Positions 8,929-56,503 of a stretch of DNA of 64,000 nt are shown piece by piece. The notes under the pieces were generated by a model. That model had not been told where the DNA came from. It did no database searches and was given only the letters and a program-made list of their open reading frames with translations. The DNA comes from Phocaeicola faecium (GTDB lineage: Bacteria > Bacteroidota > Bacteroidia > Bacteroidales > Bacteroidaceae): positions 609,035 through 673,034 of the forward strand of contig NZ_JACSPQ010000001.1 in the NCBI RefSeq assembly GCF_014837055.1, read 5' to 3'. Both the position numbers and the translations under genes were made by a program. Each line of letters begins with the position of its first letter. Position 1 is the stretch's first letter.

Positions 8929-9014
8929 AAATTCTACCGCTAAGACCACGCATTTCTACCCATAGCGTTACCAAGTCTTACCCATAGAAACAAGCAATTC
9001 TTGCGGTAGAATTT
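8929..9014. repeat. Intergenic twin-hairpin repeat, copy 1 (diverged)
   Basis: An element in the 312-base gap between map and the ABC permease. A perfect 12-base outer inverted repeat (AAATTCTACCGC at 8929-8940 with its complement at 9003-9014) encloses two units of the family core, CTACCCATAG at 8956-8965 and TTACCCATAG at about 8978-8987. Both cores face the same way, so it differs from the canonical layout of copies 2 and 4. No gene is visible in the rest of the gap. Confidence 0.75.
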
Positions 9015-17001: not shown

Positions 17002-17056
17002 TTTAATGTTTCTACCTGATATACAAGGGAATTTTTCCTGCTGTTATATCAAAAAA

Positions 17057-17140
17057 AACACTACCGTTAGCGTTGGTCATTTCTAACGGTAGTGTTGCCC
17101 GGTTCTACCCATAGTGTCCATCGGTTCTATGGGTAGCGTT
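17057..17140 (-). repeat. Intergenic twin-hairpin repeat, copy 2 (canonical)
   Basis: Two adjacent hairpins. Hairpin A has a 14-base perfect stem (AACACTACCGTTAG at 17057-17070 with its complement at 17083-17096) and a 12-base loop. Hairpin B has a 10-base perfect stem (CTACCCATAG at 17105-17114 with 17127-17136) and also a 12-base loop. The reverse complement of the whole 84 bases matches copy 4 at 30465-30548 with four substitutions. It lies 14 bases beyond the RND gene stop and could end that transcript, though there is no T-run. Confidence 0.9.
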
Positions 17141-17154
17141 TTTCAGGCTCTGAA

Positions 17155-20100
17155 TCATATCCGACGGGGTATGCCTTTACGCACTTTTTTTAAAGAGAAG
17201 ATGGGGAGATAGAAAAAGATTCCGACGACTGACATTACCAGCCCGCCGATTGTCCCTGCAGCAAGCGGGAACCAGAAGCCTTCTTTCTCCTCTCCTATCA
17301 TGAAGGGAATGAAGCCCAGCACGGTGGACACTACTGTCAGGAATATCGGAATTATCTTTACATTCCATGCTTTGGTGTAGGCACGGCGTTCGTCCAGCAG
17401 CGGGTATCGTCTGCGGATGGCGTTGTACTCGTTCAGGATGTAGATGCTGGCGTTTACCGTGATGCCGCACAGCAAAATGAATGCGGCAAAACCGCCCTGA
17501 TCGAAGTTCAGCCCGAACAGGTAGAAGGTAAGGAACACGCCGATGTACGAAATCGGGATGACGAATATGATTGCCAGAGGCTGCTTCAGCGAGTTGAACA
17601 GGATAGCCGATATGAAAAAGATGATGGCTATCACTATCAGCAGCAACAAGTATTGCCCGGAGTTATTTTCACCCCAGTTCCAATAGTAGTCCTGTATCTC
17701 CACCGTGTACCCCATCGGCAGACGCGCCTTGAGAATCTCCACATCTTTCTTCAGCAATTTTCTGCCTTGTTCCGTGGAACCGATGTACTCGTATTGCAGG
17801 CAAAGCACATACTGCTGGTTTTCTTTCGCCACCTTCTTGGGTGCCTGCTCCTTAGCCACGACTGCGAAATCGGACAGTTTATAGGATTTCCCGTTAATTA
17901 CGAAGGGCACTTCCATCAGACTCCACACGTCATAGTCCGTACTCTGGCGCGAAGAAAGCCGGAGGTACTCCAAACGGTTTTCGTAAACGATAGTCCCCAC
18001 AGCCTGCCCGTGCATGAAAACGGGCTGAAGCACGGCGAACAGCTCTTCCGCCGTGAGATTCTCCTTTGCCATACGTTCCTTGTCGAACTGCAGGAAAAAC
18101 TCGCTGTAATCATCTTTCCAGTAAGAAAATTCGGAGTTGACCGTCACCTCTTTGATACGGCGGTGGGCAAGCAGGAGCTTCTTCATCTCGTCCGCCCAAT
18201 GATTCAGTTCGTCGTAATTGTAGCCATACATCTTTACCCGGAAACTGCCGGCAGACTCGCGGACGTCGTTGCTGAATCCCTGATCCTGCAACCCGTACAC
18301 GCTCCAGCTTCCGCCGCCCAGCATCAGTGCCTTGCTTATGATATTCGATTTCAATACGTAGGGGAAACCGCTGTGCTGGTGCTCCTTCTTGAAAAAGATC
18401 TGGATGGAAGCATGACGGGCATCGTATATGGATGTCTGGAACTGTCTGATCTCCTTAAACTCACTCAGAAAAGTCTCCATCCTTTTTACCAGCGTGTTCA
18501 TCTGCTCCAGCGTGCTTCCGTTGGGCAACGTGGCGTTTACCGACAGCACCACTTCACTCTCGTCGCGCCCGAAATAGCTGCCGTTATATACTTTCTCCAC
18601 GAACAGGCGCAGGGTTCCGCCCAATACCTTGTCGACTACCGGCTTCACGTCCTCGCGGTAAGTGGCATTGTCGAACACCTTGTTATACAGTTCCGCCCAT
18701 CGGCCTTTCTCTTCCGCCTGCTCAATCTTTTCGGGAAGCATGAACACCGGTATGCCGAAAGCAAGCAACAGGATGAAGCACGCAATGACACGGTGGCGGC
18801 ACAACGCACCAATCATCACCCGGTAGAAACGGGTAAAACCTACCGTAACACGCTTGAGCCGCAGACGCGGATGAAGGGGAGCAGAACGCCGCAGGCTGAT
18901 TTTCTCTATTACCGGAGGCACAAAGAACAGGGCTACGAGGAGTGAGATGGCAAGGTTGATGATAACAACCGCCGCAAAGTCCTGCAGGTTAAGCCGGATT
19001 TTTTCGTCAAGAAAGAAGATAATCACCAAAGCTCCGATGGTGGTAAGCGTCGCCGCCAGTATCGACATGAAGGCTTTCAGGTTATGGCGGCGCAAGATAT
19101 GGTCGGTCATGACAATGGTGTTGTCGATAACCAGATTCAACGAGATGGTAATGCCCGCCAGCGAGTAAAGCTGAATCTCCAGTCCGCAAACATAATAGAG
19201 TATCACTGCCACGGATATATTCACCGCCAGACTGAGGACAATCAGGAGGAGGTAACGGAGGTTACGGGTTATCACGGCGACGAACAGCAGCAGAATCAGT
19301 ACAGTAATGCCCGTACGAAAATAGATTGTATCCAACTCCTTGCCGATATAGTCGGTAGCATCGTAGCTGGTATGCACCTCATAGCCTGCCGGCATCTTCC
19401 GCTGGACTTCCGACATCACCTCCTTAATTTTTTCGGACAGGGTGAGCTGGTTGGCGGTCTCCTCGGCGGTAATCGAAAGGTAAACGGAGTTCAGCCCATT
19501 GATACGGAAATAGCCGGAAGGCTCTTCCTCCGTATGCACCACCTTTATCAATTTGTCAAGGGGAATACCTTCTCCGTCCTTGTTGGCAACCCAGATGGAA
19601 GAAGGGTCGAAGTTGTTCTCCTCGCCTTCCGCTGTACGTACCAGCCTGATCCATTCACCACCCTCACTTGTCTGACAAATGCCCAGAAATTCTTTCCCGT
19701 AATGCTCGGCAACGGCACGGCTGATGTCTCCCACCGAGATGCCGGCGCGTGACAACCGGTCATTGTCGAAAACCAATCTCCACTCCATCGGGGTGGCGCC
19801 GCTCAACTCCACCTTATAGATGCCCTTTATCTGCGCCAGTGCCGGTTTAATCTTTTCTTCTCCGTAGCGCTGGATGACAATCGGTGTTGCGGGAGCATTC
19901 AGCGTATAGGTCATGAAAGGACGCGATGAGCGGTCATCGGAACGCCAGGTGGAAATCTGCGGATAGCTGACACCTTCGGGAAGCTGCGGCCACAACTGAC
20001 GCACCAACGTAGACACTTCAAAACGGGTCATGTCTATGTCGGCATACTTGTCCAGTTCCATGCTGACGGAACCGCTCCCGTTATCGGACGTGGAATAAAT

Positions 20101-20343
20101 GTTCCGTATCCCGCCCACGCGCGAAAGCACACCTTCCAGCCTGCTCGTCACCTCCGACTCTATCAGCCGTGCCGAATTTCCCGGCATGGAGAAAGAAACA
20201 GTCAGCCCCGGCATGGTATGCGAAGGCGACAGCTTCACCGGAAGCAGCGGAGCCAACGCCAGTCCCACCAGCGACAGGCAAACGAACGTCACAATCAGGG
20301 TGAACGAGGAAAAGGTCTTCTTATCTTCTGTGTCCTGTCTCAT
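17155..20343 (-). CDS. RND efflux transporter permease (AcrB/HAE-like)
   Basis: A 1062-residue inner-membrane RND pump, full length for the family. There is one N-terminal segment (FTLIVTFVCLSLVGLALAPL), two large periplasmic loops, and segments TM2-6 and TM8-12. TM4 reads LVIDNTIVM, with D407 kept but Asn at 408, where AcrB has a second Asp. In TM10 the position of the AcrB relay Lys is Asn (about 964, in GITVNASIYILNE). The proton relay is therefore atypical. The gene overlaps the preceding TolC fragment as ATGA, showing it was the last gene of an MFP-TolC-RND operon. The adaptor is missing and TolC is truncated here, so the pump probably lacks its usual partners and promoter. Confidence 0.92.
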   Translation of the reverse strand: MRQDTEDKKTFSSFTLIVTFVCLSLVGLALAPLLPVKLSPSHTMPGLTVSFSMPGNSARLIESEVTSRLEGVLSRVGGIRNIYSTSDNGSGSVSMELDKYADIDMTRFEVSTLVRQLWPQLPEGVSYPQISTWRSDDRSSRPFMTYTLNAPATPIVIQRYGEEKIKPALAQIKGIYKVELSGATPMEWRLVFDNDRLSRAGISVGDISRAVAEHYGKEFLGICQTSEGGEWIRLVRTAEGEENNFDPSSIWVANKDGEGIPLDKLIKVVHTEEEPSGYFRINGLNSVYLSITAEETANQLTLSEKIKEVMSEVQRKMPAGYEVHTSYDATDYIGKELDTIYFRTGITVLILLLFVAVITRNLRYLLLIVLSLAVNISVAVILYYVCGLEIQLYSLAGITISLNLVIDNTIVMTDHILRRHNLKAFMSILAATLTTIGALVIIFFLDEKIRLNLQDFAAVVIINLAISLLVALFFVPPVIEKISLRRSAPLHPRLRLKRVTVGFTRFYRVMIGALCRHRVIACFILLLAFGIPVFMLPEKIEQAEEKGRWAELYNKVFDNATYREDVKPVVDKVLGGTLRLFVEKVYNGSYFGRDESEVVLSVNATLPNGSTLEQMNTLVKRMETFLSEFKEIRQFQTSIYDARHASIQIFFKKEHQHSGFPYVLKSNIISKALMLGGGSWSVYGLQDQGFSNDVRESAGSFRVKMYGYNYDELNHWADEMKKLLLAHRRIKEVTVNSEFSYWKDDYSEFFLQFDKERMAKENLTAEELFAVLQPVFMHGQAVGTIVYENRLEYLRLSSRQSTDYDVWSLMEVPFVINGKSYKLSDFAVVAKEQAPKKVAKENQQYVLCLQYEYIGSTEQGRKLLKKDVEILKARLPMGYTVEIQDYYWNWGENNSGQYLLLLIVIAIIFFISAILFNSLKQPLAIIFVIPISYIGVFLTFYLFGLNFDQGGFAAFILLCGITVNASIYILNEYNAIRRRYPLLDERRAYTKAWNVKIIPIFLTVVSTVLGFIPFMIGEEKEGFWFPLAAGTIGGLVMSVVGIFFYLPIFSLKKVRKGIPRRI

Positions 20344-20642
20344 CGGTAAGTCCCCCTGTCAAAGTCGAAATGGTCAGCCAATGAAAATCCGCTTTCAAAA
20401 TCGTGGAGCGTGAGCTTGCGTATTTTATAATAATTCAACCAATAATTCTGCAACGCCCCGATGTAGTTCTTCTGTGCCTCCTGCTGGCGGTTCAACGAGA
20501 GTGTCAGACTGTTTATGTCCGCCTGCCCGATAATGAAGCGCCTGCGGGTCTGGTCATAAGCAAGCTCGGCAAGTTCAAGTGCCTCTTCAGCACTGCTCAC
20601 CAAATCCTGCTGCACGTTAAAGTCGCTCACCGTCACCATCAA
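20340..20642 (-). pseudogene. TolC-type outer membrane efflux protein, C-terminal fragment
   Basis: About 100 residues of the last part of a TolC-family channel: MVTVSDFNVQQDLVSSAEEA, then LAYDQTRRRFIIGQADINSL and QEAQKNYIGALQNYWLNYYK, typical of the final helices. A complete protein would have about 450 residues. No start with a leader exists, and the homologous reading stops near 20642, where sequence of the opposite-strand gene begins. The 3' end overlaps the RND start by four bases. The upstream adaptor gene is also absent, so a deletion or rearrangement removed the front of the operon. Confidence 0.85.
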
Positions 20643-20644
20643 AT

Positions 20645-21127
20645 AATACGAATCCTATACGATACATAAGATATGTACCTCCCACAGGCATATTGCAAGT
20701 TGCAGAAATCAAACTATATGAAGACACTTCGCTTGAAAAAGAAATACGCATGAAACCCGTCACGCTTCTCCCTTATATTGAACATGTTACAGATGGAGAC
20801 ATATTATCTTTCTTATACCTGACTTCGGAAGGCATCATAGAACCTTTGGTGTTTGCTCTTGAAAGACCGCAATCGATAAGAAGTATTTATTACGTCACGA
20901 GAACCGACGACAACTATGTATGGGAAGGAGATGTATATGAGTTGTTATATCAAGACGGACCTGACGGATGGAAATCATTAGGGACAAAAGCCGCTACATC
21001 CAAGCATATAACATTCAATGCGCCAAAAAATGCTTTACTGTGGTTGCGGGATAAGACCAAAGGAAGAGAAGAGCAGGTTTTCATCTATAAACATAACAGA
21101 CAATGGTTCAACTCTGATTTCAAATAG
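20645..21127 (+). pseudogene. C-terminal fragment of a large secreted protein (discoidin/transglutaminase-type tail)
   Basis: An open frame running from about 20645 to a stop at 21125-21127 with no proper start. The first readable residues (NPIRYIRYVPPTGILQVAEI) look like the middle of a discoidin-like or carbohydrate-binding domain. The C terminus (DGWKSLGTKAATSK, NALLWLRDKTKGREEQVF) is like the tail of large Bacteroidetes secreted proteins that I associate with transglutaminase-like domains. The only start options are TTG at 20693 or an internal ATG at 20750. Because coding-like sequence continues upstream of both, I read this as a 5'-truncated gene rather than a small intact one. Confidence 0.7.
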
Positions 21128-21295
21128 TAACCTATCAAAGCCTGCTTAAACGCTGTACAAATCCATAAAAATGTATACAATTTTTATCTTAAAAACAAGC
21201 AACTCCTCCTGATAAGCAAGCTGAAAAATCGTCATCTTAGAACCGTTTAAATTTTCCGATAAAGTAAAACAGGCTCTCAACGTATCAAAAAATTC

Positions 21296-21375
21296 TATAG
21301 GTAGCATTAAGGGGTTTATCGAATAGAAGTATGGAACGCAAGCGGTAGCGCTGAATGACGCAAGCGGTAGCGTTT
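21296..21375. repeat. Intergenic repeat, copy 3 (degenerate) with a 15-base direct repeat
   Basis: In the 329-base gap between two convergent genes, a decayed family member begins ATTCTATAGGTAGC and ends with two perfect direct copies of ACGCAAGCGGTAGCG (21336-21350 and 21358-21372, period 22). It keeps the TAGCG/GGTAGCG half-sites of the family but no longer folds into the two standard hairpins. Apart from this repeat and the terminator at 21391-21428, I see nothing in the gap. Confidence 0.55.
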
Positions 21376-21390
21376 TGCCATCGAAAAACA

Positions 21391-21428
21391 TAAAAAAAGC
21401 CAACCGACTCCTGACGAATCGGTTGGCT
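21391..21428 (-). terminator. Terminator of the thioredoxin-like gene
   Basis: A 10-base perfect stem (AGCCAACCGA at 21398-21407 with 21419-21428) encloses an 11-base loop and is followed on the minus strand by a run of seven T. It lies 28 bases after the stop of the gene at 21457. Confidence 0.88.
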
Positions 21429-21456
21429 GAGCGATGTGATGTATTTCTATAAATGA

Positions 21457-22560
21457 TTATTTCAAAAGTTCGCCCAATTTGGCATCCAATTCTTCTCCAC
21501 GCAAATTGCGGGCTACGATTTTGCCTTGTCCGTCTACCAGCACCGTTGCCGGGATTGAACGGACGCCGTACAAGCCTGCACCTGCACTCTTCCATCCCTT
21601 CAAATCAGACATCTGCGGCCATGTAATGTTCAAATCCTTAATAGCTTTCTTCCAGCTTTCAAGATTGCTGTCTAACGAAACACCTACGATTTCAAGTCCT
21701 TTTGCCTTGTACTTGGCATAAGCGGCTACCACATTGGGCATCTCCATGCGGCAAGGACCGCACCAGCTTGCCCAAAAATCAATCAAGGTATATTTGTTCT
21801 TGGCAACGTAGTCAGAAAGTTTAATTTCTTTACCATCGGGAGTAGGCATGGCGAAATCGATGTAATTCTGCCCTACGGATGTTTTTACCACCGTTTCCAC
21901 GTATTCTTTCAAGGCTGCAAGGTCTTTATCGGCTGCATATCCGGCAGGAACTTGAGCCAACAGCGGCTGAACTTTCACGGCATCGAAAGCATAACCGAAC
22001 GAAGCCAACAGATGAACGCCAACGGGGTTGGTTACGTTATCGGATATCGTAGTAAACATCTTATCCATGTTTTCGGTATCCATCTTGTCGAGCACTTGGC
22101 TCATCGAGTCGCGCTGTGCCTTAGTCAGCGTAGAGTCCATCTTCATCATTTGCTCCCAGATGGTATTCATTTCCTGTCTTGAAGCCATGTAATCGTCCAT
22201 AATCTTCTGGAAAAGGTCGTTATACGAAGTACCCGATACGCGGCTTGCTTCCGGGTTCAGCGCCACATTGATCGTTCCGTTTTCAGAAAAGAAAGTAGCA
22301 ACCATGCGGCTATTATCCGTGGCATAAGTCACATAACGTACTTTAATCAATGAATCGGGTGTACAAGTAAATTCGAATGTTCCGTTTTTCACTTCCACCG
22401 AGTCTGCCGGAACGAGGTTTCCGTCTACAAAGTCTTGCAGGTAAACATATTCTCCATCGGCAACTCCTTCTGCTGTTCCTTTGACGGTATACCCCGTCTG
22501 ATTCTGACAAGCAGCCAGCGACATTAATCCCGCTACTGCCATTAACACTGTTTTTTTCAT
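21457..22560 (-). CDS. TlpA/ResA-like thiol-disulfide oxidoreductase lipoprotein (DUF4369 N-terminal domain)
   Basis: A 367-residue lipoprotein. The signal peptide is MKKTVLMAVAGLMSLAAC. The N-terminal part, about 25-130, matches the DUF4369 type (GYTVKGTAEGVADGEYVYL). A helical middle rich in Met/Asp follows. The C-terminal thioredoxin fold, about 235-367, has WCGPC with C267 and C270 (DFWASWCGPCRMEMP) and the cis-Pro segment RSIPATVLVDGQGKIV. It probably reduces or exchanges disulfides at the periplasmic face. It is a single gene, with its own promoter at 22610-22617 and terminator at 21391-21428. Confidence 0.93.
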   Translation of the reverse strand: MKKTVLMAVAGLMSLAACQNQTGYTVKGTAEGVADGEYVYLQDFVDGNLVPADSVEVKNGTFEFTCTPDSLIKVRYVTYATDNSRMVATFFSENGTINVALNPEASRVSGTSYNDLFQKIMDDYMASRQEMNTIWEQMMKMDSTLTKAQRDSMSQVLDKMDTENMDKMFTTISDNVTNPVGVHLLASFGYAFDAVKVQPLLAQVPAGYAADKDLAALKEYVETVVKTSVGQNYIDFAMPTPDGKEIKLSDYVAKNKYTLIDFWASWCGPCRMEMPNVVAAYAKYKAKGLEIVGVSLDSNLESWKKAIKDLNITWPQMSDLKGWKSAGAGLYGVRSIPATVLVDGQGKIVARNLRGEELDAKLGELLK

Positions 22561-22609
22561 TGCTTTTATCTATTAAAAATTACATTTAGCGAATATTTCA
22601 TTTTGCGAA

Positions 22610-22617
22610 CAAATATA
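22610..22617 (-). promoter_or_regulatory. Probable -7 box for the thioredoxin-like gene
   Basis: The minus strand reads TATATTTG, with a TTTC/TTTT -33 about 20 bases further upstream (22637-22641). The leader is about 45 bases. The MITE-like element begins only 17 bases beyond the -33 region. Confidence 0.6.
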
Positions 22618-22657
22618 ACGCTTTCAGATGAAACAAGAAAAAGATTACAGAAAGTTT

Positions 22658-22851
22658 AGAAACTGTTTTGAATTTCTCCAAAAAGTTTTTCTCGTCTTGA
22701 TGCATTCGTTTTCGTGTGTGCTTTGAGCGATTTTTTGGTCCTTTCCGCTTCTGTTCTTCGTCAGATAGCCCGCTATCTTCCTCATCACACAAGCGAAAAT
22801 GCCTCAAAAACTCATCCCAAATCATCGCACGATAAATTCAAAACAGTTTCT
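22658..22851. mobile_element. MITE-like element with 18-base terminal inverted repeats
   Basis: A perfect 18-base inverted repeat (AGAAACTGTTTTGAATTT at 22658-22675, complement at 22834-22851) bounds 194 bases. The interior has a small palindrome (GATAGCCCGCTATC) and no transposase. A minus-strand frame crosses it (22598-22825, starting MIWDEFLRHFRLCDEED), but the element's own structure explains it better than a gene would. A second, partial copy of its left 69 bases occurs at 56424-56492. No clear target-site duplication is seen. This accounts for most of the 313-base gap 22561-22873. Confidence 0.72.
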
Positions 22852-22873
22852 TAGAGCCTATTAAATTTTGCTC

Positions 22874-23575
22874 TTACTTTCTTTCCGGCGATTCAATCAG
22901 GGGAAGAAGCGAACAAACGAGGTAGGCGGCGCAGAACACGCCGTCGGGAACTCCGACGCAGGCGAGAAGGTGCGTATAATCTAAAGCAGAAAAGAACAGG
23001 GTGACAAAAAACAACGTGACGAAAAAGGTGGGGCGGCGGACAAAAAGGCAGGACATGCCGCGAACGATGTCTTTGTCCGAGCGATAATAATCGGCTACGC
23101 AGGCATAGACTATCGCCATCAGCGACATGCCTAAGGAGATGACACACCATATCCCTTTCGCCAGCGGAGAATCTTCTAACGTACCGATGACATTGCGCAC
23201 GATTCCCCACGGCCCCCACGCCAGCACTCCACAGGCGGCAGCGTAGATACCTCCCACCACCAGCGCCATCCATAGTCCGCGCCGCTCTTTACGGAAAAGA
23301 CTGTGCTTGCCCGAACAGACTCTCCACAGCGACTGCCCCAAGCCGGAATCTGCCCAAAGTCCGGCCCCGAAGAAAAGAATCAATGCCGGAAGCAGTACGG
23401 GCGAGTGCAGATAGTTGTCGGCAAGGCTGCGGAGCGCCCACCGGAGCCCTTCCGGACTCAGCAGATTCTGAACGCCCTGCCAGTCGTAAATGCTTCCAAT
23501 CCACGATACGAAAAGCACAGCCAGCGTAAGCAGCATATAGCATGAGGCAAGTCGGATAAAACCTTTAGTCTTCAT
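22874..23575 (-). CDS. Six-segment membrane protein of unknown function
   Basis: A 233-residue inner-membrane protein with about six hydrophobic segments (SCYMLLTLAVLFVSWIGSIY; SPVLLPALILFFGAGLWA; GLWMALVVGGIYAAACGVLA; WCVISLGMSLMAIVYACVA; FFVTLFFVTLFFSALDY; FCAAYLVCSLLPLI). I do not recognise a characterised family; a distant resemblance to AbgT-like transporters is possible. Its start overlaps the end of the response regulator by 11 bases, so it is co-translated with the kinase and regulator and probably belongs to that signalling unit. Confidence 0.8.
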   Translation of the reverse strand: MKTKGFIRLASCYMLLTLAVLFVSWIGSIYDWQGVQNLLSPEGLRWALRSLADNYLHSPVLLPALILFFGAGLWADSGLGQSLWRVCSGKHSLFRKERRGLWMALVVGGIYAAACGVLAWGPWGIVRNVIGTLEDSPLAKGIWCVISLGMSLMAIVYACVADYYRSDKDIVRGMSCLFVRRPTFFVTLFFVTLFFSALDYTHLLACVGVPDGVFCAAYLVCSLLPLIESPERK

Positions 23576-24290
23576 CGGGTTCCAGATTATCTATATCCAA
23601 AATGCGGAGTTCGAAAGCCCGCGTTACAAGACGGCAGGCATTTACACCGGTACGCTCATCGGGACGGAACAGACGGTTTACCAAGTCGTTCTGCCGTTTC
23701 TCAATCGACTTCACTCCGAAAGGCATTGCCTTCAGATTGGTTATCATTTCTTTCGTATACCCCAAAGCCAAATGACGCAGCAAGCGTTCATCGTATTCGT
23801 CGATGTCGTACTCGATGATGGCTTCCTGTCGACGCTGTTCTGTCTCCACCGCTTGCTTGAAACGCTCTACTATCTTCTCCAATATCGGATAATTGAAGAC
23901 CAGTTTCTTGCCGTCCATTACCGCCTGCACATCGGTTGCCGTCAGCAGCTCACCGGTTTTCAGTATGATTCCGTCGGCACCTGCATTCAGTACATCTACC
24001 CACAGCTTTTCGTTCAGAATCTCTCCGGTAAATATCAGCACTTTCAGCTCCGGGCGTTCGCGATGCAAACGGGCACAAATGTCTACACCGATGGTAGTGG
24101 AACCTCCCAGACCTAAGTCAAGCAACACCAAATCGGGCGTACAGGTTTGGAGCAACGTCCAAAAGTCGGCTTCGGTCATAGCCGTACCTATCACTTCGGC
24201 ATTGGGTATCTCATGGCGAAAAATCTCCTCCGTTCCTTTCAGCTCTAACTTAACGTCTTCTACTATGATTACTTTAAACTTCTTTTCCAT
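23565..24290 (-). CDS. Response regulator with receiver and C-terminal helical output domain
   Basis: A 241-residue regulator. The receiver domain covers about 1-125, with the acidic pair E11/D12, phospho-acceptor D58 (PDLVLLDLGLGG), a Thr in VLIFTG and Lys in IILKTGE. The C-terminal part, about 165-235 (LLRHLALGYTKEMITNLKAM ... SIEKRQNDLVNRL), resembles a LuxR-type helix-turn-helix. The start is at MEKKFKVIIVED; an earlier ATG at 24413 would run back into the kinase gene. It begins 16 bases after the kinase stop, so it is the clear partner of the double kinase. Confidence 0.9.
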   Translation of the reverse strand: MEKKFKVIIVEDVKLELKGTEEIFRHEIPNAEVIGTAMTEADFWTLLQTCTPDLVLLDLGLGGSTTIGVDICARLHRERPELKVLIFTGEILNEKLWVDVLNAGADGIILKTGELLTATDVQAVMDGKKLVFNYPILEKIVERFKQAVETEQRRQEAIIEYDIDEYDERLLRHLALGYTKEMITNLKAMPFGVKSIEKRQNDLVNRLFRPDERTGVNACRLVTRAFELRILDIDNLEPDED

Positions 24291-24306
24291 ATCTATAAAC
24301 ATCTGA

Positions 24307-27300
24307 TTAAATTCGTTTCTGACTGAGCGGGACTGTGAACCATACGGTAAAGCCCTCCCCTGTTGCCGGCGAAGCATTGATGCGGCATCCGCGACGTCCG
24401 GCATAATCGTCATGCTCGCGGATAATTTGTTTGCATACCAAGTATTCCGTCCCTACAAGTGTACCACTGCTACCCGCCGGACACATACGCGATTTATCGG
24501 GATAAAACAAAGCGTTCAGGGTTTCTTGCGTATAGACACGTCGGCAGTCTGTAAAATCAAAACGGGCAAATCCGTTCTCGTTCCGTACCGAAAGTTTCAG
24601 TTTGCCCGGATGAGCATATCGCACTGCCTCCTCAAGCAAATTGGCAAGAAGGAAGCGTAATAAGACTTCGTCTCCAATTACCGTCAGCGATTCACAGTCG
24701 ACTTCCATTTGTATCTCTACCTGCTGTTTCCGTATCAGTTTCTTCAGATACTTCCCGGCATACTCTGCCAAGCCCTGCACCTTTACTTCCGAACGGCGGA
24801 AAGTTACATCATCTAACTGGCGTGCCGCACAAGCGGTAAGCAGTGTGAATACATCTTTATAATAGCCAACCAATTCTGCCATCGCTTCAAGCTGGGTATC
24901 TGTTTCCGCTTCCGGAAGTCCGTCGTCCATCCGCTCCAATATCTGCTTGATGCGATTCGGATAATACATTGTTTCGTGTTTGATGGTAGACAAACAGTTA
25001 TCAAGCACCATATTCTGAACATGGAGTTGGTTTTCTTCGAATCGGGAGCGCCGCGCATCGTCTTCCGCCAACTCAATGTCGCTGTACTTACGCCGCACCT
25101 GAATAATGGTATGATATAACACAACACTCAGATAACCCGTTACCAGCTCTACCGCCAAACGGTCTTCTTCACGGGTAAACGGACGGAAAAGGTTCAGAGC
25201 CAGTACGCCGATGCTTTGTTTTTCATCTCCCGACTCTATCCACAACGGCAGGCAGCTCCATCCGATATTCTCCGTCCATTGCGGAATTTGTTTGTCGAAA
25301 CATTGCTGAACAGAATCGGCAGACTCATTTTGGTTTTCTTTTTCCGGGAAACAATAAGTATAGCGCAGGGAGTGAGATTCATCGTCATACGCTGCCAAGA
25401 CCATATTGTCGATAGGAACCAACTCTTTCAGTTCGCCGAATATACCGGTCAACTGTTCAGGACGTATAGCCAACTCACCCTTCTCACTCCAAGCTGCCGA
25501 AGCGGAAAATATGGCTCGGTTTATAGCGAATACCTGCTCCATATTATAGCGGTAATACAGTCGCCTGCGCACGTAAAGTACATAATACGCCGAAAGACAC
25601 GCCAACACCGAAAGAATAAACACTACTAAAGCAATCCATTTATTATTTGCCGATTGCTGCATCTGGAGGCAATATTCTTCCAACGAGGTGTCTTTGCTTA
25701 ATTTCTTATATAGTACAGTATAGGCATTGTTATTATAACGATAAACACGAAAATCTTTTACTGCCAGTGCTGCAACAGCGGCTTCGTTTCTTACATCGAG
25801 CAGTATGTAGTAATCGGTAACAAAACCTTGAGCCAGCCATGTTTGTTCTGCCGGTTCACTTTTACTGTATAAGCTGAGCATGGGAGTGCGACTGCCTGAG
25901 TAATGAGCGTGATGCGTATTCATATAATGGAATACACTGTCTGCCAGCATCAATGCCTCCTGATAACGCCCATTTACATTGCAGTCGTAAACTAAATTAG
26001 CGTAATTATTGGCTTTTACCAGCAAGCTGTCATACTCCATTACAGGGGCAGCCGCAGTCTTGTCTCCCGCCTGACCGGAACAGGCTGTACCCATCCACGA
26101 GAACAGAAACAGCAGTCCCACGCCTATGCTTTTGCGGATTCCTTTAGGCAAGCGGAAATAAAAGCGGCTGCCTTTTCCCAATTTGCTTTCGATACTGAAC
26201 AAACAAACATTGAAAATCGGATTCGTTTTACGATATTTCTCAATAATTCCTTTACAGTTCATCAACCCGAATCCGTGCCCTTTCTGTTTGCGCAGACCGG
26301 AAGCATCTGTAGCTGTGGATAGACCTATTGACGATGAATCGTAAACCTTACTGTCTAATATCAGGGAAATGTCATCAGCAGACAGCCCCGGCCCGTTATC
26401 GGTTACTGATATCTCGACATAAGTATCGGTTTCTTCGGCTTTTACTTCGATACATCCACCTTCGGGCGTATATTTCCGGGCGTTTTCTGCCAACGTATTT
26501 ATCATGAACAAGGTCAGCGACTTGTCTGCTTTCACCACGGCTTGTGTAGGCACAACCGTTAGTTGCTGGTGCTTCTGTTCAAAAGTACGTCGGCCCTTTG
26601 CTATTACCGAAAAAAGTTCATCCAAACCGAAGTTCTCTACGCTCAAGCTCAGCTCTCCCTGTCTCATTTTGATCCAGCAAGCCAAGATGTCGTTATATTC
26701 ATTGATTTTGGTTATCAGTTCGCTGATGTAATCCAACTTTCCCCGGCGAACGTCTTTTGCCTGTGCATAAGCAAACGACTGCAATTTGTGTATTTCGTTT
26801 ACCGTACGGTCGATGTAGGGCAATATCCCCGTAACAATGGAAAGACATGCTTTCTTTACTTCGTTCTGACACTTATATTCCGCCAGTCGCTGCTCGTGAG
26901 CATAAAGTTCTTTTTCCAATCGTTTCCGTTCGTCGCTCAGCAATACGAAATTCATTCCGTTTTCGAGCGTCCATGCCAGATAGGGAAGCAACAGGCGGAT
27001 ATATGCTTCTTCTTCCTTTCGCAACTTCTTGGAACGGAACAGGAAAAGTTTTCCCACCGGCTTTTGCTTGCCGGGAGATACCAATTCAAAAGTCAACTTG
27101 TTTTTCGTTTCGGACACATCTTCTTCCGCTGATTCTTCGCCGTCTAACACCACATGCAGGCCGGTAGCACCAAACATTTGCAACAAATCATCTTTTACCG
27201 CCCTGAGTACGGCATCCTTCACCTCATCCCTGTCTGCCGCATCAGCAGGAACTCCCCCGGTTATTTTCCGGCAAAGCGTCAAGAGGTGTTTCAGTTTCTG

Positions 27301-28719
27301 AAGATAAAGGGTATTCCGTTTTTTTCGGTAAATGCTCAGTCCGATAAACAATGCGGTCAGAACGATAAGGCTTAGCACCACGAGCATCAGCATGGCATTC
27401 AGCAAACGAGACTCGTGCTTCAGCGTCTGATAGCGGCTCTCCAGCTCTTTGTCTTGGCGCGTATAGTCCAGAATATCCAGATATACATTCCGGTTGTAAT
27501 CCGATTCCTGCTTGCAGTCCATCGCCGCGTAAGTACGGCTCAACTGTTCGCGCAGGCGGGCTATCCACTCCGGAACGGTTTTGATTCCTTCATCGTTTAT
27601 CCACGCAAGCTCTACCGATGCGGGCGCATTAGGAACAAACGTGCGCAGGCGGTCGAGTGTATCTTCGCAATGGTAATATTTTTCATGGTGGAGGTTTACG
27701 TAATCCAATGCTTTTTTCAAATTCGCCAAGGCCTTTTCAGGCTTTCCGGCATGGTTATAATAAGTGGCAATCGTACGATAAGTACCTGAAATCTGATACC
27801 AGTCGCCGTAACGTTTGAACAGCTGCAAGGCGTTTCGTGCGTATCGCAGCGGAAGGCTGTCAAGCTCTATGTTATCGGGGTTGATCAGCCGCAGCAGTCC
27901 AGAACGTTTTTCTTCCACCAACTTTCGGTTGCTTCTGAAATTCAGCAACTCGGCTATTGCCTGCATAGCATTGGCTTCGAAATAAACATAACCGCCTACG
28001 TGACCCGCTTGCAGACAATCGAGCAGATAGCCCAGCTCGCCCAACACAATTTTTTCCGGCGAATCGGCCTCGTACATTCCCCCCGAACCGCGCATATACA
28101 GATAGTAAAGCCATTGGGAAGTATCGCCCCACAATATCTCTTCGGGGATGGCATTAATGGCTTCCAACGCCTCTTTGTCTTGCTGCAAATAATAATAGTA
28201 GATGCCCGATACGATATAAAACTCCGATATTCCGTAATTCAACCGCTTCTGCAACCACTCATCGGTAATCGAGGAGCGGTCTTCGTCGATGCGTTTCATG
28301 CGGTGAAGAGCACGGTTGCGATAGTCGTAGAACTCTTTGTTCATTGATGTCCGCTGACAAATTTTCATCATGCCCACATCGGCTATCAGGTGTTCGATTT
28401 CGTTTCTTCCCGTGCGGGCAGCTTCGCGGTACAGGCGTGCAGAGTGTTCAAAGTCCATTTGCATGAAAGCACAGAAAGCCAGGTTGTTCAACGCCTCCGC
28501 CCGTCCGTCGGAATAATCGGCAGACAAGCGGAATGCCTGTTTTGCCGCCTGCAACGAGGCATCCAGATTTTTATAGCGTACCTCGTATGCCTGACGGTTC
28601 AGCGAGTCGGTTTCCGCAGCAAGACGATTTGCCTCCCCCCTGCCTCCACACGCCGGAAGCAGTGCGCCGCACACCACCGCCGCACACAGCAAGTTCCAAA
28701 CATACTTAGCCACTATCAT
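24307..28719 (-). CDS. Double sensor histidine kinase with two complementary modules
   Basis: A 1470-residue membrane protein. Module 1 has an N-terminal lipoprotein-like signal (Cys about 24), a TPR-rich periplasmic region to about 430, a TM at about 437-462, a GAF-like region, and an HATPase with intact N box (NTLAENARKYT, about 739), G1 DNGPGLS (about 773) and G2 GHGFGLMN (about 811). At the phospho-acceptor position it has Gly631 (LSIVTGILPY). Module 2 opens with an internal lipobox-like stretch (SIGVGLLFLFSWMGTAC, Cys880) and has a TM at about 1025-1049. His1248 sits in TIKHETMYY, but the ATP site is lost: Glu1364 in place of the N-box Asn, and no DxGxG. The likely families are DUF5112/DUF5113. 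The response regulator follows by 16 bases. One working kinase shared between two modules is inferred. Confidence 0.9.
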   Translation of the reverse strand: MIVAKYVWNLLCAAVVCGALLPACGGRGEANRLAAETDSLNRQAYEVRYKNLDASLQAAKQAFRLSADYSDGRAEALNNLAFCAFMQMDFEHSARLYREAARTGRNEIEHLIADVGMMKICQRTSMNKEFYDYRNRALHRMKRIDEDRSSITDEWLQKRLNYGISEFYIVSGIYYYYLQQDKEALEAINAIPEEILWGDTSQWLYYLYMRGSGGMYEADSPEKIVLGELGYLLDCLQAGHVGGYVYFEANAMQAIAELLNFRSNRKLVEEKRSGLLRLINPDNIELDSLPLRYARNALQLFKRYGDWYQISGTYRTIATYYNHAGKPEKALANLKKALDYVNLHHEKYYHCEDTLDRLRTFVPNAPASVELAWINDEGIKTVPEWIARLREQLSRTYAAMDCKQESDYNRNVYLDILDYTRQDKELESRYQTLKHESRLLNAMLMLVVLSLIVLTALFIGLSIYRKKRNTLYLQKLKHLLTLCRKITGGVPADAADRDEVKDAVLRAVKDDLLQMFGATGLHVVLDGEESAEEDVSETKNKLTFELVSPGKQKPVGKLFLFRSKKLRKEEEAYIRLLLPYLAWTLENGMNFVLLSDERKRLEKELYAHEQRLAEYKCQNEVKKACLSIVTGILPYIDRTVNEIHKLQSFAYAQAKDVRRGKLDYISELITKINEYNDILACWIKMRQGELSLSVENFGLDELFSVIAKGRRTFEQKHQQLTVVPTQAVVKADKSLTLFMINTLAENARKYTPEGGCIEVKAEETDTYVEISVTDNGPGLSADDISLILDSKVYDSSSIGLSTATDASGLRKQKGHGFGLMNCKGIIEKYRKTNPIFNVCLFSIESKLGKGSRFYFRLPKGIRKSIGVGLLFLFSWMGTACSGQAGDKTAAAPVMEYDSLLVKANNYANLVYDCNVNGRYQEALMLADSVFHYMNTHHAHYSGSRTPMLSLYSKSEPAEQTWLAQGFVTDYYILLDVRNEAAVAALAVKDFRVYRYNNNAYTVLYKKLSKDTSLEEYCLQMQQSANNKWIALVVFILSVLACLSAYYVLYVRRRLYYRYNMEQVFAINRAIFSASAAWSEKGELAIRPEQLTGIFGELKELVPIDNMVLAAYDDESHSLRYTYCFPEKENQNESADSVQQCFDKQIPQWTENIGWSCLPLWIESGDEKQSIGVLALNLFRPFTREEDRLAVELVTGYLSVVLYHTIIQVRRKYSDIELAEDDARRSRFEENQLHVQNMVLDNCLSTIKHETMYYPNRIKQILERMDDGLPEAETDTQLEAMAELVGYYKDVFTLLTACAARQLDDVTFRRSEVKVQGLAEYAGKYLKKLIRKQQVEIQMEVDCESLTVIGDEVLLRFLLANLLEEAVRYAHPGKLKLSVRNENGFARFDFTDCRRVYTQETLNALFYPDKSRMCPAGSSGTLVGTEYLVCKQIIREHDDYAGRRGCRINASPATGEGFTVWFTVPLSQKRI

Positions 28720-28812
28720 ATAAGTCCTAATATATATAAAGAAAGAGAGATTGTATCGGAATCAGAAACTCTGACGAGATACAACCTCCCTCCATTCAGT
28801 GTTGGTATGACT

Positions 28813-28989
28813 TTATTTTTTTGATTCTTCCAAAGATACTTTTCTAAATTCTTTCAACACTTTTTCCAATTCCAAAGATGCTTTACGCGCACGGGTTCCC
28901 GCTGCTTTATTTCCTTTTCCAGCCTGTAACTCTGCGTCTGCAACCAATGCCTCAGTCATTTCTTTGATTTTTGCAATTAATTCGTTCAT
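28813..28989 (-). CDS. Histone H1-like small basic protein
   Basis: A 58-residue protein: MNELIAKIKEMTEALVADAE, then the Lys/Ala/Arg-rich GNKAAGTRARKASLELEKVL and KEFRKVSLEESKK. The GNKAAGxRARKASLE core is what Bacteroidetes annotations call histone H1 (Hc1-like). It is likely a DNA-binding nucleoid protein (family knowledge). It stands alone between tilS and the double kinase. A weak TTACTTTG box lies upstream at 29019-29026 (minus strand). Confidence 0.87.
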   Translation of the reverse strand: MNELIAKIKEMTEALVADAELQAGKGNKAAGTRARKASLELEKVLKEFRKVSLEESKK

Positions 28990-29084
28990 AGTTTCTTAAA
29001 TATTTAATTAAACATATCCAAAGTAAATACAATTCGCTCAATGTAAAGCATCGGCAGCTTCTTTTTTTACATCTTTTAATACAA

Positions 29085-30383
29085 CTACCTGTCTTTTATT
29101 GCAAAATCTACATGCAAAAGCAAAATACGCCGTGTTTCCGTAGTTACACGATAGCGATTATCCGTCCGTTCGTTTACTAACCATACGATTTCTCCGCCGC
29201 TGCAAACCACGTATTGTTCTTCTTTGCGGAATACGGAAAACTTCTTATCGAGCATGTAATCGCGCACTTTTTTAAAACCTTTCATCCCATAAGGAACAAA
29301 CCGGTCTCCCGACTGCCATTTACGGAGCGTCAGCGGCAGGGTTACCTTGTCGGCATCCAAACAGGCATAAAGCGGGTTGCGCAGAAAGGCCGGTGCCGAC
29401 TCGGCAGGAATCACTTCTTGATGTAATACGGGAGATTGTTCGTCCCACTCGCCGCATTGTTTCCATATCAGTTCGCTACGGTCGCACAACAACACTTTGT
29501 CACCGGCATAAAACAACTTGCCCGACTGCCCTTTCAAACATGCCCCATAAATATCTTTCAGTTGCGAGGCGTTAAATCCCAACGGATAAAACAATTCGTA
29601 CAACACAGCTTGGGGAGATGTCTCCCGCAACAGAGCCGATATGCTGACACGACGTTCGCCCACTTTCACCCGAACACAAGCCTCTGCCATTGCCGCATGA
29701 TAAACATCCGCCACGTCCGACAGCCTACGTGCTGTTTCGGCTATGGCTTCTTTCACCGAAGGATTAATACTTTCAAGCATGGGCAATAGGTTCAGCCGCA
29801 ATTTATTCCGGGTAAACTCATCTTCCAGATTCGTACTGTCGGTTACGTACGGCTGATTCAGAGAAGACAAATATGTCAATATTTCTTCCCTGCTCACACT
29901 TAATAGCGGGCGGACTATCACCCCGTTTTTAGGACGAATACCGCGCAAGCCGTCAATCCCTGTTCCGCGTGTAAGATTCAGTAAAAAAGTTTCCACGCTA
30001 TCGTCTCGATGATGAGCCACAGCCACCACACTTGCTCCGATATCCCGGCGCACTTGCTCGAACCACCCGTAACGCAATTCGCGTGCTGCCATCTCGATGG
30101 AAATGCCTTTCGAAGAAGCATAACCAGCCGTATCAAAATGGGTTACATGGAGCGGTACACTTAACTGCTCCGTCAGTTTACGCACGAAATTTTCATCGCG
30201 CACCGACTCTTCGCCGCGCAGATGGAAATTGCAATGGGCTGCCTCGCACACGTATCCGGCATGAACCAAAACTCTGAGCAGCGCCACCGAGTCGGCACCT
30301 CCGCTCAAAGCCACCAATATCCGTTCGCTTTTACCGAACAGTTGTTTCTCTTCAATATAAAGTATCACTTTTTTACCAAACAT
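29085..30383 (-). CDS. tilS: tRNA(Ile)-lysidine synthase TilS
   Basis: A 432-residue N-type ATP pyrophosphatase that makes lysidine at C34 of tRNA-Ile(CAU), changing its decoding to AUA. The P-loop SGGADS is at 27-32, followed by HCNFHLRGEESVRDENF, AHHRDDSVETFLLNLTRG and the C-terminal TilS substrate-binding region (LTLRKWQSGDRFVPYGMKG). Length is typical. A promoter match lies directly upstream (30411-30442). The gene is divergent from feoB. Confidence 0.96.
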   Translation of the reverse strand: MFGKKVILYIEEKQLFGKSERILVALSGGADSVALLRVLVHAGYVCEAAHCNFHLRGEESVRDENFVRKLTEQLSVPLHVTHFDTAGYASSKGISIEMAARELRYGWFEQVRRDIGASVVAVAHHRDDSVETFLLNLTRGTGIDGLRGIRPKNGVIVRPLLSVSREEILTYLSSLNQPYVTDSTNLEDEFTRNKLRLNLLPMLESINPSVKEAIAETARRLSDVADVYHAAMAEACVRVKVGERRVSISALLRETSPQAVLYELFYPLGFNASQLKDIYGACLKGQSGKLFYAGDKVLLCDRSELIWKQCGEWDEQSPVLHQEVIPAESAPAFLRNPLYACLDADKVTLPLTLRKWQSGDRFVPYGMKGFKKVRDYMLDKKFSVFRKEEQYVVCSGGEIVWLVNERTDNRYRVTTETRRILLLHVDFAIKDR

Positions 30384-30410
30384 ATCCGGGCTTTTATCTG
30401 ATTATCCGAA

Positions 30411-30442
30411 CAAAGTTACACTATTTTCGGATAGGCGGCAAC
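30411..30442 (-). promoter_or_regulatory. Promoter of tilS
   Basis: On the minus strand GTTG (complement of 30439-30442), 20 bases, TAACTTTG (complement of 30411-30418). The -7 box is a full match and the -33 differs by one base. The leader is about 20 bases. Confidence 0.65.
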
Positions 30443-30464
30443 TGATGGCTGAAAAAGTGCTTAA

Positions 30465-30548
30465 AACGCTACCCATAGAACCGATGAACACTATGGGAAG
30501 AACCGGGCAACACTACCGTTAGAAATGACCAACACTAACGGTAGCGTT
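30465..30548 (+). repeat. Intergenic twin-hairpin repeat, copy 4 (canonical)
   Basis: An 84-base element in the divergent tilS-feoB gap (30384-30720). AACGCTACCCATAG pairs imperfectly with CTATGGGAAG as hairpin B, and CTACCGTTAG pairs with CTAACGGTAG as hairpin A, each with a 12-base loop. Aligned to the reverse complement of copy 2 it differs at only four positions. Two of those (T to A in the hairpin B arm, and the end base pair of hairpin A) fall in stems. It sits between two promoters that read outwards. Confidence 0.9.
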
Positions 30549-30666
30549 TTCGGGGGCATGACGGCACCTGATTCCTGCCTATGCTTGAGTAAGCAAACGG
30601 GGCATTTTATAGTACCCGGCACATACAGAAACATCCCAACATATTATTTAAAAACAATCTAAATTA

Positions 30667-56204: not shown

Positions 56205-56295
56205 ACATGGATGAAAACCGGAGAGGAAAGTGATTTAAACAGGTTCTTATAGCGAGCTTATTTTCAAGGCTTTACCGCTTAGCCGGAAAGTCGGA

Positions 56296-56384
56296 AAATT
56301 CTACCCATAGCACCGGTCGGTTCTATGGGTAGAAACAGTAAACGCTACCGCATGAAATGAGTAACGCTACCCGTAGTGTTTTCG
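56296..56384 (+). repeat. Intergenic twin-hairpin repeat, copy 6
   Basis: Hairpin B is perfect (CTACCCATAG at 56301-56310 with 56323-56332, loop 12 bases). The second half, AACGCTACCG ... AACGCTACCCGTAGTGTTTTCG, corresponds to hairpin A of copy 4 but its arms have drifted and pair poorly. It has the same orientation as copy 4. It lies in the 328-base uxaC to metallo-hydrolase gap (56205-56532) together with the element fragment at 56424-56492. Confidence 0.82.
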
Positions 56385-56423: not shown

Positions 56424-56492
56424 TTTTGAATTTCTCCAAAAAGCTTTCTTGGCTTGATGTTTTCATTTTCGTGTGTGCTTTAGGCGATTTTT
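56424..56492 (+). repeat. Partial copy of the MITE-like element
   Basis: About 69 bases match the left part of the element at 22658-22851, starting at TTTTGAATTTCTCCAAAAAG and including TTTCGTGTGTGCTTT and GCGATTTTTT, with scattered substitutions. The outer 8 bases of the inverted repeat and the whole right half are missing. It runs directly into the promoter of the metallo-hydrolase. Confidence 0.75.
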
Positions 56493-56503
56493 TTGTAACT
56501 TTG
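56472..56503 (+). promoter_or_regulatory. Promoter of the metallo-hydrolase gene
   Basis: TGTG at 56472-56475, 20 bases, TAACTTTG at 56496-56503. The -7 box is a full match and the -33 differs by one base. The -33 and most of the spacer are provided by the repeat fragment. The gene starts at 56533, about 22 bases after the expected start site. Confidence 0.65.

What the first reader, a model, noticed from the sequence alone, without database searches (positions are those of the whole stretch)
17057..30548. Two 84-base twin-hairpin elements are inverted copies 13 kb apart with four differences
The reverse complement of 17057-17140 and the plus strand of 30465-30548 agree at 80 of 84 positions by my alignment. 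Each contains two hairpins with 10- to 14-base stems and loops of exactly 12 bases. Non-coding sequence this similar at two unrelated gene borders implies recent copying or strong selection on structure. I know of no family with these cores (CTACCCATAG, CTACCGTTAG). They resemble REP/BIME elements in form, which are moved by RAYT transposases.
Basis: seen in the sequence. Interest (0 to 1): 0.8.

Follow-up and report, generated by a model that had tools for sequence, protein, structure and literature searches.

The report
Four-box intergenic repeat arrays, 22-nt period
The two "twin hairpins" are two of at least 150 copies of a short intergenic repeat made of four 10-letter boxes set 22 letters apart; some related bacteria carry the same layout with different box letters, which looks more like docking sites for an unknown DNA-binding protein than like a hairpin RNA.

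Summary
In detail: 80 of 84 positions, 84 of 88 over the whole repeat. The twin hairpin is not what is conserved: both stems are nearly intact in 8 of 100 copies and covariation is absent to weak. Conserved are four dyad-like 10-nt boxes from a small alphabet, in either orientation, at a 22-nt period. Copies lie between genes (0 of 79 in called genes) and keep apart (none under 2 kb, 8.5 expected). Cores stay alike while their arms diverge. Three relatives show the same grammar with other boxes, and 22 nt is the leading period in each genome scanned. Four sites are empty in relatives. RAYT-type Y1 transposase was not found, nor any Rfam, plasmid or phage match or paper. Best reading: a MITE-like insertion carrying a four-site array for an unidentified oligomeric DNA-binding protein. 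[quoted passage not shown]

The parts
17055..17142 (-). Array core of the finding, copy 1; boxes at 17061-17070, 17083-17092, 17105-17114, 17127-17136
   Evidence: Inverted-repeat search, pattern, profile E 8.6e-30
30463..30550 (+). Array core of the finding, copy 2; boxes at 30469-30478, 30491-30500, 30513-30522, 30535-30544
   Evidence: profile E 7.7e-30
56295..56382 (+). Further array; boxes at 56301-56310, 56323-56332, 56345-56354, 56367-56376
   Evidence: profile E 1.2e-22
8930..9013 (-). Further, more divergent array; boxes at 8934-8943, 8956-8965, 8978-8987, 9000-9009; the two inner boxes are direct repeats, so they do not pair as a hairpin
   Evidence: profile E 3.4e-5
21291..21374 (+). 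Further, divergent array; boxes at 21295-21304, 21317-21326, 21339-21348, 21361-21370
   Evidence: Box letters; profile E 2.6e-4

Best explanation
The element is a MITE-like intergenic insertion whose 88-bp core is an array of four dyad-like 10-bp boxes (eight alternating half-sites, roughly AAC-N-CWW) at a 22-bp period, about two helical turns. SHOWN: copy number, box grammar, intergenic placement, avoidance of close neighbours, cores more alike than arms, four sites empty in relatives, and the same grammar with other box letters in three relatives. INFERRED: the boxes dock an oligomeric DNA-binding protein on one face of the DNA; binding keeps the core conserved after insertion; copies spread by transposition; avoidance reflects target immunity or selection for spacing. 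The protein is not identified; it may be a host protein or the transposase.
For: On C1, 407 exact box words lie at 22 (204 pairs), 44 (137) and 66 nt (65), none at 88. Free period scan: 22 nt gives 10 arrays in own C1, 32 in G171, 15 in G153 and 12 in G060; no other period from 14 to 40 exceeds 3 at the same setting. Boxes are self-complementary at 5.87 of 10 positions, 2.46 when shuffled. Own placement matches the spread of spacers >=150 nt (49/17/12 tandem/divergent/convergent against 227/91/43). Neighbours under 2 kb: 0 against 8.5 expected; in G171 under 4 kb: 0 against 8.2. Pairs with 85-100% core identity share arms at 46%, shuffled arms 33%. Empty sites.
Against: No binding protein or mobile-element gene identified. 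Core conservation could be gene conversion, and the arm alignments are rough. A weak covariation excess exists in 88 copies. In G171 arrays lean to convergent and away from divergent sites (15/12/6 tandem/convergent/divergent against 44/25/42). Close-neighbour avoidance is not visible in the smaller G153 and G060 samples. G153 also shows arrays at periods 20 and 24 in looser scans.
Confidence: 0.5

Rival explanations
1. Plain selfish MITE: the boxes are only transposase-binding sites, bursts of copying explain the numbers, target immunity explains the avoidance of neighbours, and there is no host function.
For: Lineage-specific copies and four empty sites in relatives; some arms carry inward ends like those of a second MITE in the genome: 8 left and 10 right arms of 99 match 14 or more of 19 letters, shuffled words 0.1 and 0.3; another MITE type, BrickBuilt, is also intergenic with internal repeats.
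Against: Cores stay alike while arms drift, which plain decay of dead copies does not predict unless cores are converted; no autonomous partner was found flanked by such ends on C1, though the whole genome was not searched for transposases.
Confidence: 0.3
2. RNA-level or hairpin element: a REP-like stem pair or a two-way transcription terminator (A-run and T-run at the ends, boxes forming stems).
For: Ends AAAAACG...CGTTTTT; boxes 1 and 2 are mostly opposed (84.0% of cells paired); in 88 copies paired cells 76.0% against 74.6% and 68 double changes against 43, beyond all 500 shuffles; convergent lean in G171.
Against: Both stems at 9/10 or better in 8 of 100 copies, second stem in 10 of 100; 30 copies show no covariation; in 88 copies the numbers of covarying pairs and pair types are at shuffle level and a slide of -2 columns scores as high; own copies show no convergent excess and no orientation bias (22 same, 27 opposite); G060 has arrays with all boxes in one direction.
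Confidence: 0.15

Closest known systems
BrickBuilt MITE of Porphyromonas gingivalis (PMC4596501: abstract, sections 5 and 8, and part 1 of section 7 read)
   Same: Intergenic MITE-like element of a Bacteroidales species with internal short repeats of about one box-plus-spacer length, and ends like those of other elements of the same genome
   Different: 23-nt direct repeats, from 1 to 22.8 per element, 19 copies, leader and tail; here 22-nt period, boxes in either orientation, typically four, at least 150 copies. BrickBuilt ends (GAGACCTTTGCA type) differ from the AAGAGCYTGTTTAAAYTTT-like arms here
REP/BIME elements of enterobacteria and pseudomonads (recalled; PMC2817692 seen as a search listing only)
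   Same: Many short intergenic palindromic units in alternating orientation
   Different: Box arrays on a fixed 22-nt ruler, stems mostly broken, no Y1 transposase in the genome
Ends of Tn7- and Mu-like transposons (recalled only)
   Same: Several sites of about 22 bp within about 90 bp, and avoidance of nearby copies (target immunity)
   Different: Here the array is the whole conserved core and nearly symmetric; no linked transposase gene seen

Membership tests
REP/BIME moved by RAYT | Y1 (RAYT) transposase gene in the genome | tested here: not met
   PF01797: 0 matches at E<=0.001 in the own genome, controls ring in 5 of 14
REP/BIME moved by RAYT | Conserved stem-loop | tested here: not met
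   Both stems at 9/10 or better in 8 of 100 copies; covariation absent to weak
REP/BIME moved by RAYT | Many intergenic copies | tested here: met
   At least 150 copies; 0 of 79 in called genes
BrickBuilt | 23-nt tandem direct repeats with leader and tail | tested here: not met
   Period 22, boxes in either orientation; no sequence comparison with BrickBuilt itself was run
MITE (general) | Insertion with inverted ends shared with other elements | tested here: inconclusive
   Empty sites in relatives; inward end-like arms in a minority; exact element ends and target duplications not established
Intrinsic terminators | Placed downstream of genes, convergent sites favoured | tested here: inconclusive
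   Own: 12 of 78 convergent, background 43 of 361. G171: 12 of 33 convergent, background 25 of 111
Known RNA families (Rfam 15) | Match at gathering score | tested here: not met
   Window: four tRNAs only; 140 kb of relatives: two tRNAs and RNase P
Tn7/Mu-like ends | Linked transposase and terminal motifs | not tested
   Resemblance recalled, no search for these transposases was made

The most novel reading that the evidence does not exclude
A class of chromosome-wide docking arrays in Bacteroidaceae with a fixed helical grammar (10-bp box, 22-bp period), box letters that differ between species of one genus, and an exclusion zone of a few kb: either a fast-evolving chromosome-organising system seeded by mobile elements, or a MITE class with target immunity whose binding sites stay under selection after insertion.
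Probability: 0.35. Interest if true: 0.85.

Novelty: new variant of a known kind. Interest (0 to 1): 0.6.

Why it matters
One species carries at least 150 protein-site-like arrays that avoid each other over kilobases, and some relatives use the same 22-nt ruler with other letters. Finding the binder would tell whether this is chromosome organisation, a domesticated mobile element, or selfish DNA with immunity, and would explain a large share of the patterned intergenic DNA in these genomes.

Tried and rejected
Twin-hairpin RNA or terminator as main reading. RAYT. Rfam family. Plasmid or phage origin: no blastn match of copy 2 in 72,556 plasmid or 50,697 phage records; one viral contig has a single CTACCCATAG palindrome, not an array. 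The second MITE of this genome has no plasmid match either. Conserved array positions: an array-like stretch in G192 between the same two genes as copy 2 was seen by eye, but the scan does not report it; of 47 conserved gene pairs none held an array in both genomes. Regular spacing along the whole contig: gap CV 1.01 against 0.94 in the null, so not regular; only short gaps are depleted. A three-box pattern with own boxes found nothing in genome contigs, where records near the own genome may be left out. No description of this repeat was seen in the listings (5 of 5 listed; 3 of 3; none found; 40 of 129; 15 of 343; 2 of 2; 15 of 34); most subscription papers are not held. Gene calls come from a home-made codon-usage caller, not a standard program.

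Full report
1. Observation. The reverse complement of 17057-17140 matches 30465-30548 at 80 of 84 positions; the full repeat is 88 nt with 84 identities. The two-box pattern (up to 3 mismatches) has 11 matches in the window against a mean of 0.08 in shuffles. The window holds five arrays, near 8930, 17055, 21291, 30463 and 56295.

2. Family size. blastn of copy 2 against the own genome listed 50 places, 40 of them with E<=7e-16 (40 of 201 first-look candidates scored). A covariance model from 30 copies gave 150 matches, all at E<=2.9e-10, with 150 of 1529 candidates scored, so 150 is a floor. CTACCCATAG occurs 230 times in the genome against 20 for the reversed word. In about 1.6 Mb of fetched sequence (contig C1, 1.31 Mb, plus stretches chosen mostly because they hold copies) a profile found 130 separate loci at E<0.01, 94 of them on C1, and 111 at E<1e-6, 79 of them on C1.

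3. Anatomy. The consensus is GAAAAACG-box-12 nt-box-12 nt-box-12 nt-box-CGTTTTTC. Boxes come from a small alphabet used in either orientation; of 444 boxes in 111 copies, 111 are CTACCCATAG, 81 CTAACGGTAG, 35 CATGCGGTAG and 19 CATCCGCATG, counted with their complements. The 21 words seen three times or more occur 407 times on C1 (82 for reversed words). Pairs within 200 nt lie at 22 (204), 44 (137) and 66 nt (65), plus six single other distances; none is 88 or 110. A looser scan shows one array of five among 31 on C1, and one copy is 22 nt short, C1:211371-211456. Information is high in columns 10-98 and falls outside. Boxes are self-complementary at 5.87 of 10 positions, 2.46 after shuffling. 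Arms of about 45 and 65 nt are weakly conserved.

4. Hairpins. In 30 copies covariation equals shuffles. In 88 of 100 copies there is a weak excess: 76.0% paired cells against 74.6%, 68 double changes against 43.0 and covariation score 0.101 against 0.084, none reached in 500 shuffles; but pairs with double changes (13 against 11.2) and further pair types (31 against 30.1) are not in excess, and a slide of -2 columns scores 0.108. Box pairing beyond chance is small: boxes 1-2 8.22 against 8.04 (P 0.006), boxes 3-4 6.43 against 6.33 (P 0.03). Both stems are at 9/10 or better, G-U allowed, in 8 of 100 copies and perfect in 3. The pair in the finding is untypical in being hairpin-like.

5. Placement. 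Of 79 C1 copies at E<1e-6 none overlaps a called gene by more than 20 nt. Of these 78 could be classified: 49 tandem, 17 divergent, 12 convergent, against 227, 91 and 43 for spacers of 150 nt or more; in tandem sites 22 share the gene direction and 27 oppose it. In G171, 34 of 35 arrays lie outside called genes and 33 are classified: 15 tandem, 12 convergent, 6 divergent against 44, 25 and 42, a lean away from divergent sites; G153 gives 10, 4, 1 against 30, 7, 15 and G060 10, 1, 2 against 26, 4, 8.

6. Avoidance. With 94 copies on C1, 0 neighbours are under 2 kb (8.5 expected), 5 under 4 kb (20.4), 11 under 5 kb (24.8) and 51 under 10 kb (46.6); 79 copies and a block-wise null agree. In G171, 0 of 32 gaps are under 4 kb against 8.2. 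G153 (14 gaps, 5 under 2 kb against 2.8, with doubtful scan hits among them) and G060 (8 gaps) do not show it. Gaps as a whole are not regular.

7. Evolution. Among 1650 of 4851 copy pairs examined, the 55 with 85-100% core identity share arms at 46%, shuffled arms 33%; the arm alignments are rough, and arm identity hardly follows core identity. Against G171, G153 and G060, 47 conserved neighbouring gene pairs were compared: arrays in own only 4, in the relative only 0, in both 0. The four spacers measure 84, 97, 10 and -4 nt in the relative and 459, 407, 140 and 309 nt in own. These are most simply insertions in the own lineage, although loss in the relative is not excluded. A minority of arms carry inward ends like those of a second MITE: 8 left and 10 right arms of 99 match 14 or more of 19 letters, shuffled words 0.1 and 0.3.

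8. Relatives. In 151 family genomes R1 matched 3 (own, G060, G140), with 25 candidates scored per genome and strict filters, so this is a lower bound. G060, of another genus, has CAACACGTTG or CAACGTGTTG boxes in the same layout. A CATMCGKATG pair at 22 nt occurs in 13 of 61 genomes of the genus: 71 in G153, 35 in G171, 8 in own; controls are 0, except 1 in G153; several single matches look like chance. Three such boxes in a row: 2 of 393 genomes of the order, own included, so each box type is local. The scan for any box (four boxes, up to 2 mismatches) gives at 22 nt 10 arrays in own C1, 32 in G171 (394 kb), 15 in G153 (184 kb) and 12 in G060 (200 kb); no other period from 14 to 40 exceeds 3. 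Looser settings show side peaks, for example in G153 9 at 20 nt and 10 at 24 nt against 22 at 22 nt, and 9 at 21 nt against 31 in own. Boxes per array: G060 4-5, G153 3-7 with 4 commonest, G171 3-9 with 6 commonest, so four is typical of own and G060 but not universal. Stretches of G153 and G060 were chosen around matches, so their densities (about one per 12-15 kb) are not unbiased. Named records with three CATACGTATG boxes: one uncultured Bacteroides sp. MAG (three contigs, two with the lengths of G153 contigs), a Prevotellaceae, a Cytophagaceae and an uncultured Bacteroidetes MAG, and one Lachnospiraceae MAG.

9. Mechanism. A two-turn period, dyad boxes free to flip, variable spacers, a typical count of four, cores more alike than arms and, in own, indifference to transcription direction point to DNA-level docking of an oligomeric protein rather than to RNA. 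That is inference; the binder is unknown. Avoidance fits target immunity or selection for spacing. A present RAYT partner was not found.

10. Known relatives. BrickBuilt is the nearest published thing in form but differs in period, unit number, copy number and ends (sequence not compared). A review of prokaryotic MITEs, PMC10969869 (passages only), says MITEs are normally intergenic. The listings showed no description of this repeat.

Noticed in passing
Own genome, e.g. G000:C1:963741-963915 and C1:716450-716625: A second MITE of about 175 nt with ends AGAGCCTGTTTAAATTTT: 43 end matches at up to 2 mismatches, reversed controls 0, eight pairs 154-155 nt apart. At least seven ends lie 27-60 nt from an array.
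   Followed up: partly
window 22681-22739 and 56438-56496: A 59-nt direct repeat, 81% alike, before the starts of two predicted genes.
   Followed up: no
G171 stretches, e.g. L181 about 4527 and L192 about 16363; L175 about 1535: Other 22-nt-period families in the same genome with unrelated boxes (CACGTGCGTG; TTGTCTCACA...GTGAAAC type).
   Followed up: partly
L217 (Lachnospiraceae MAG contig), 1245-1320: Four CATACGTATG boxes at 22 nt outside Bacteroidota; spread, convergence or binning error not resolved.
   Followed up: no
L159 about 1499-1575 (G000:C1:894465): An own-genome array that mixes CATACGGATG boxes with an own-type box, CTTCGGGTAG.
   Followed up: no
G000:C1 about 306700-418300: A 112-kb gap without arrays that overlaps stretches of shifted GC (0.385 and 0.474 per 50 kb), perhaps acquired DNA.
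   Followed up: no
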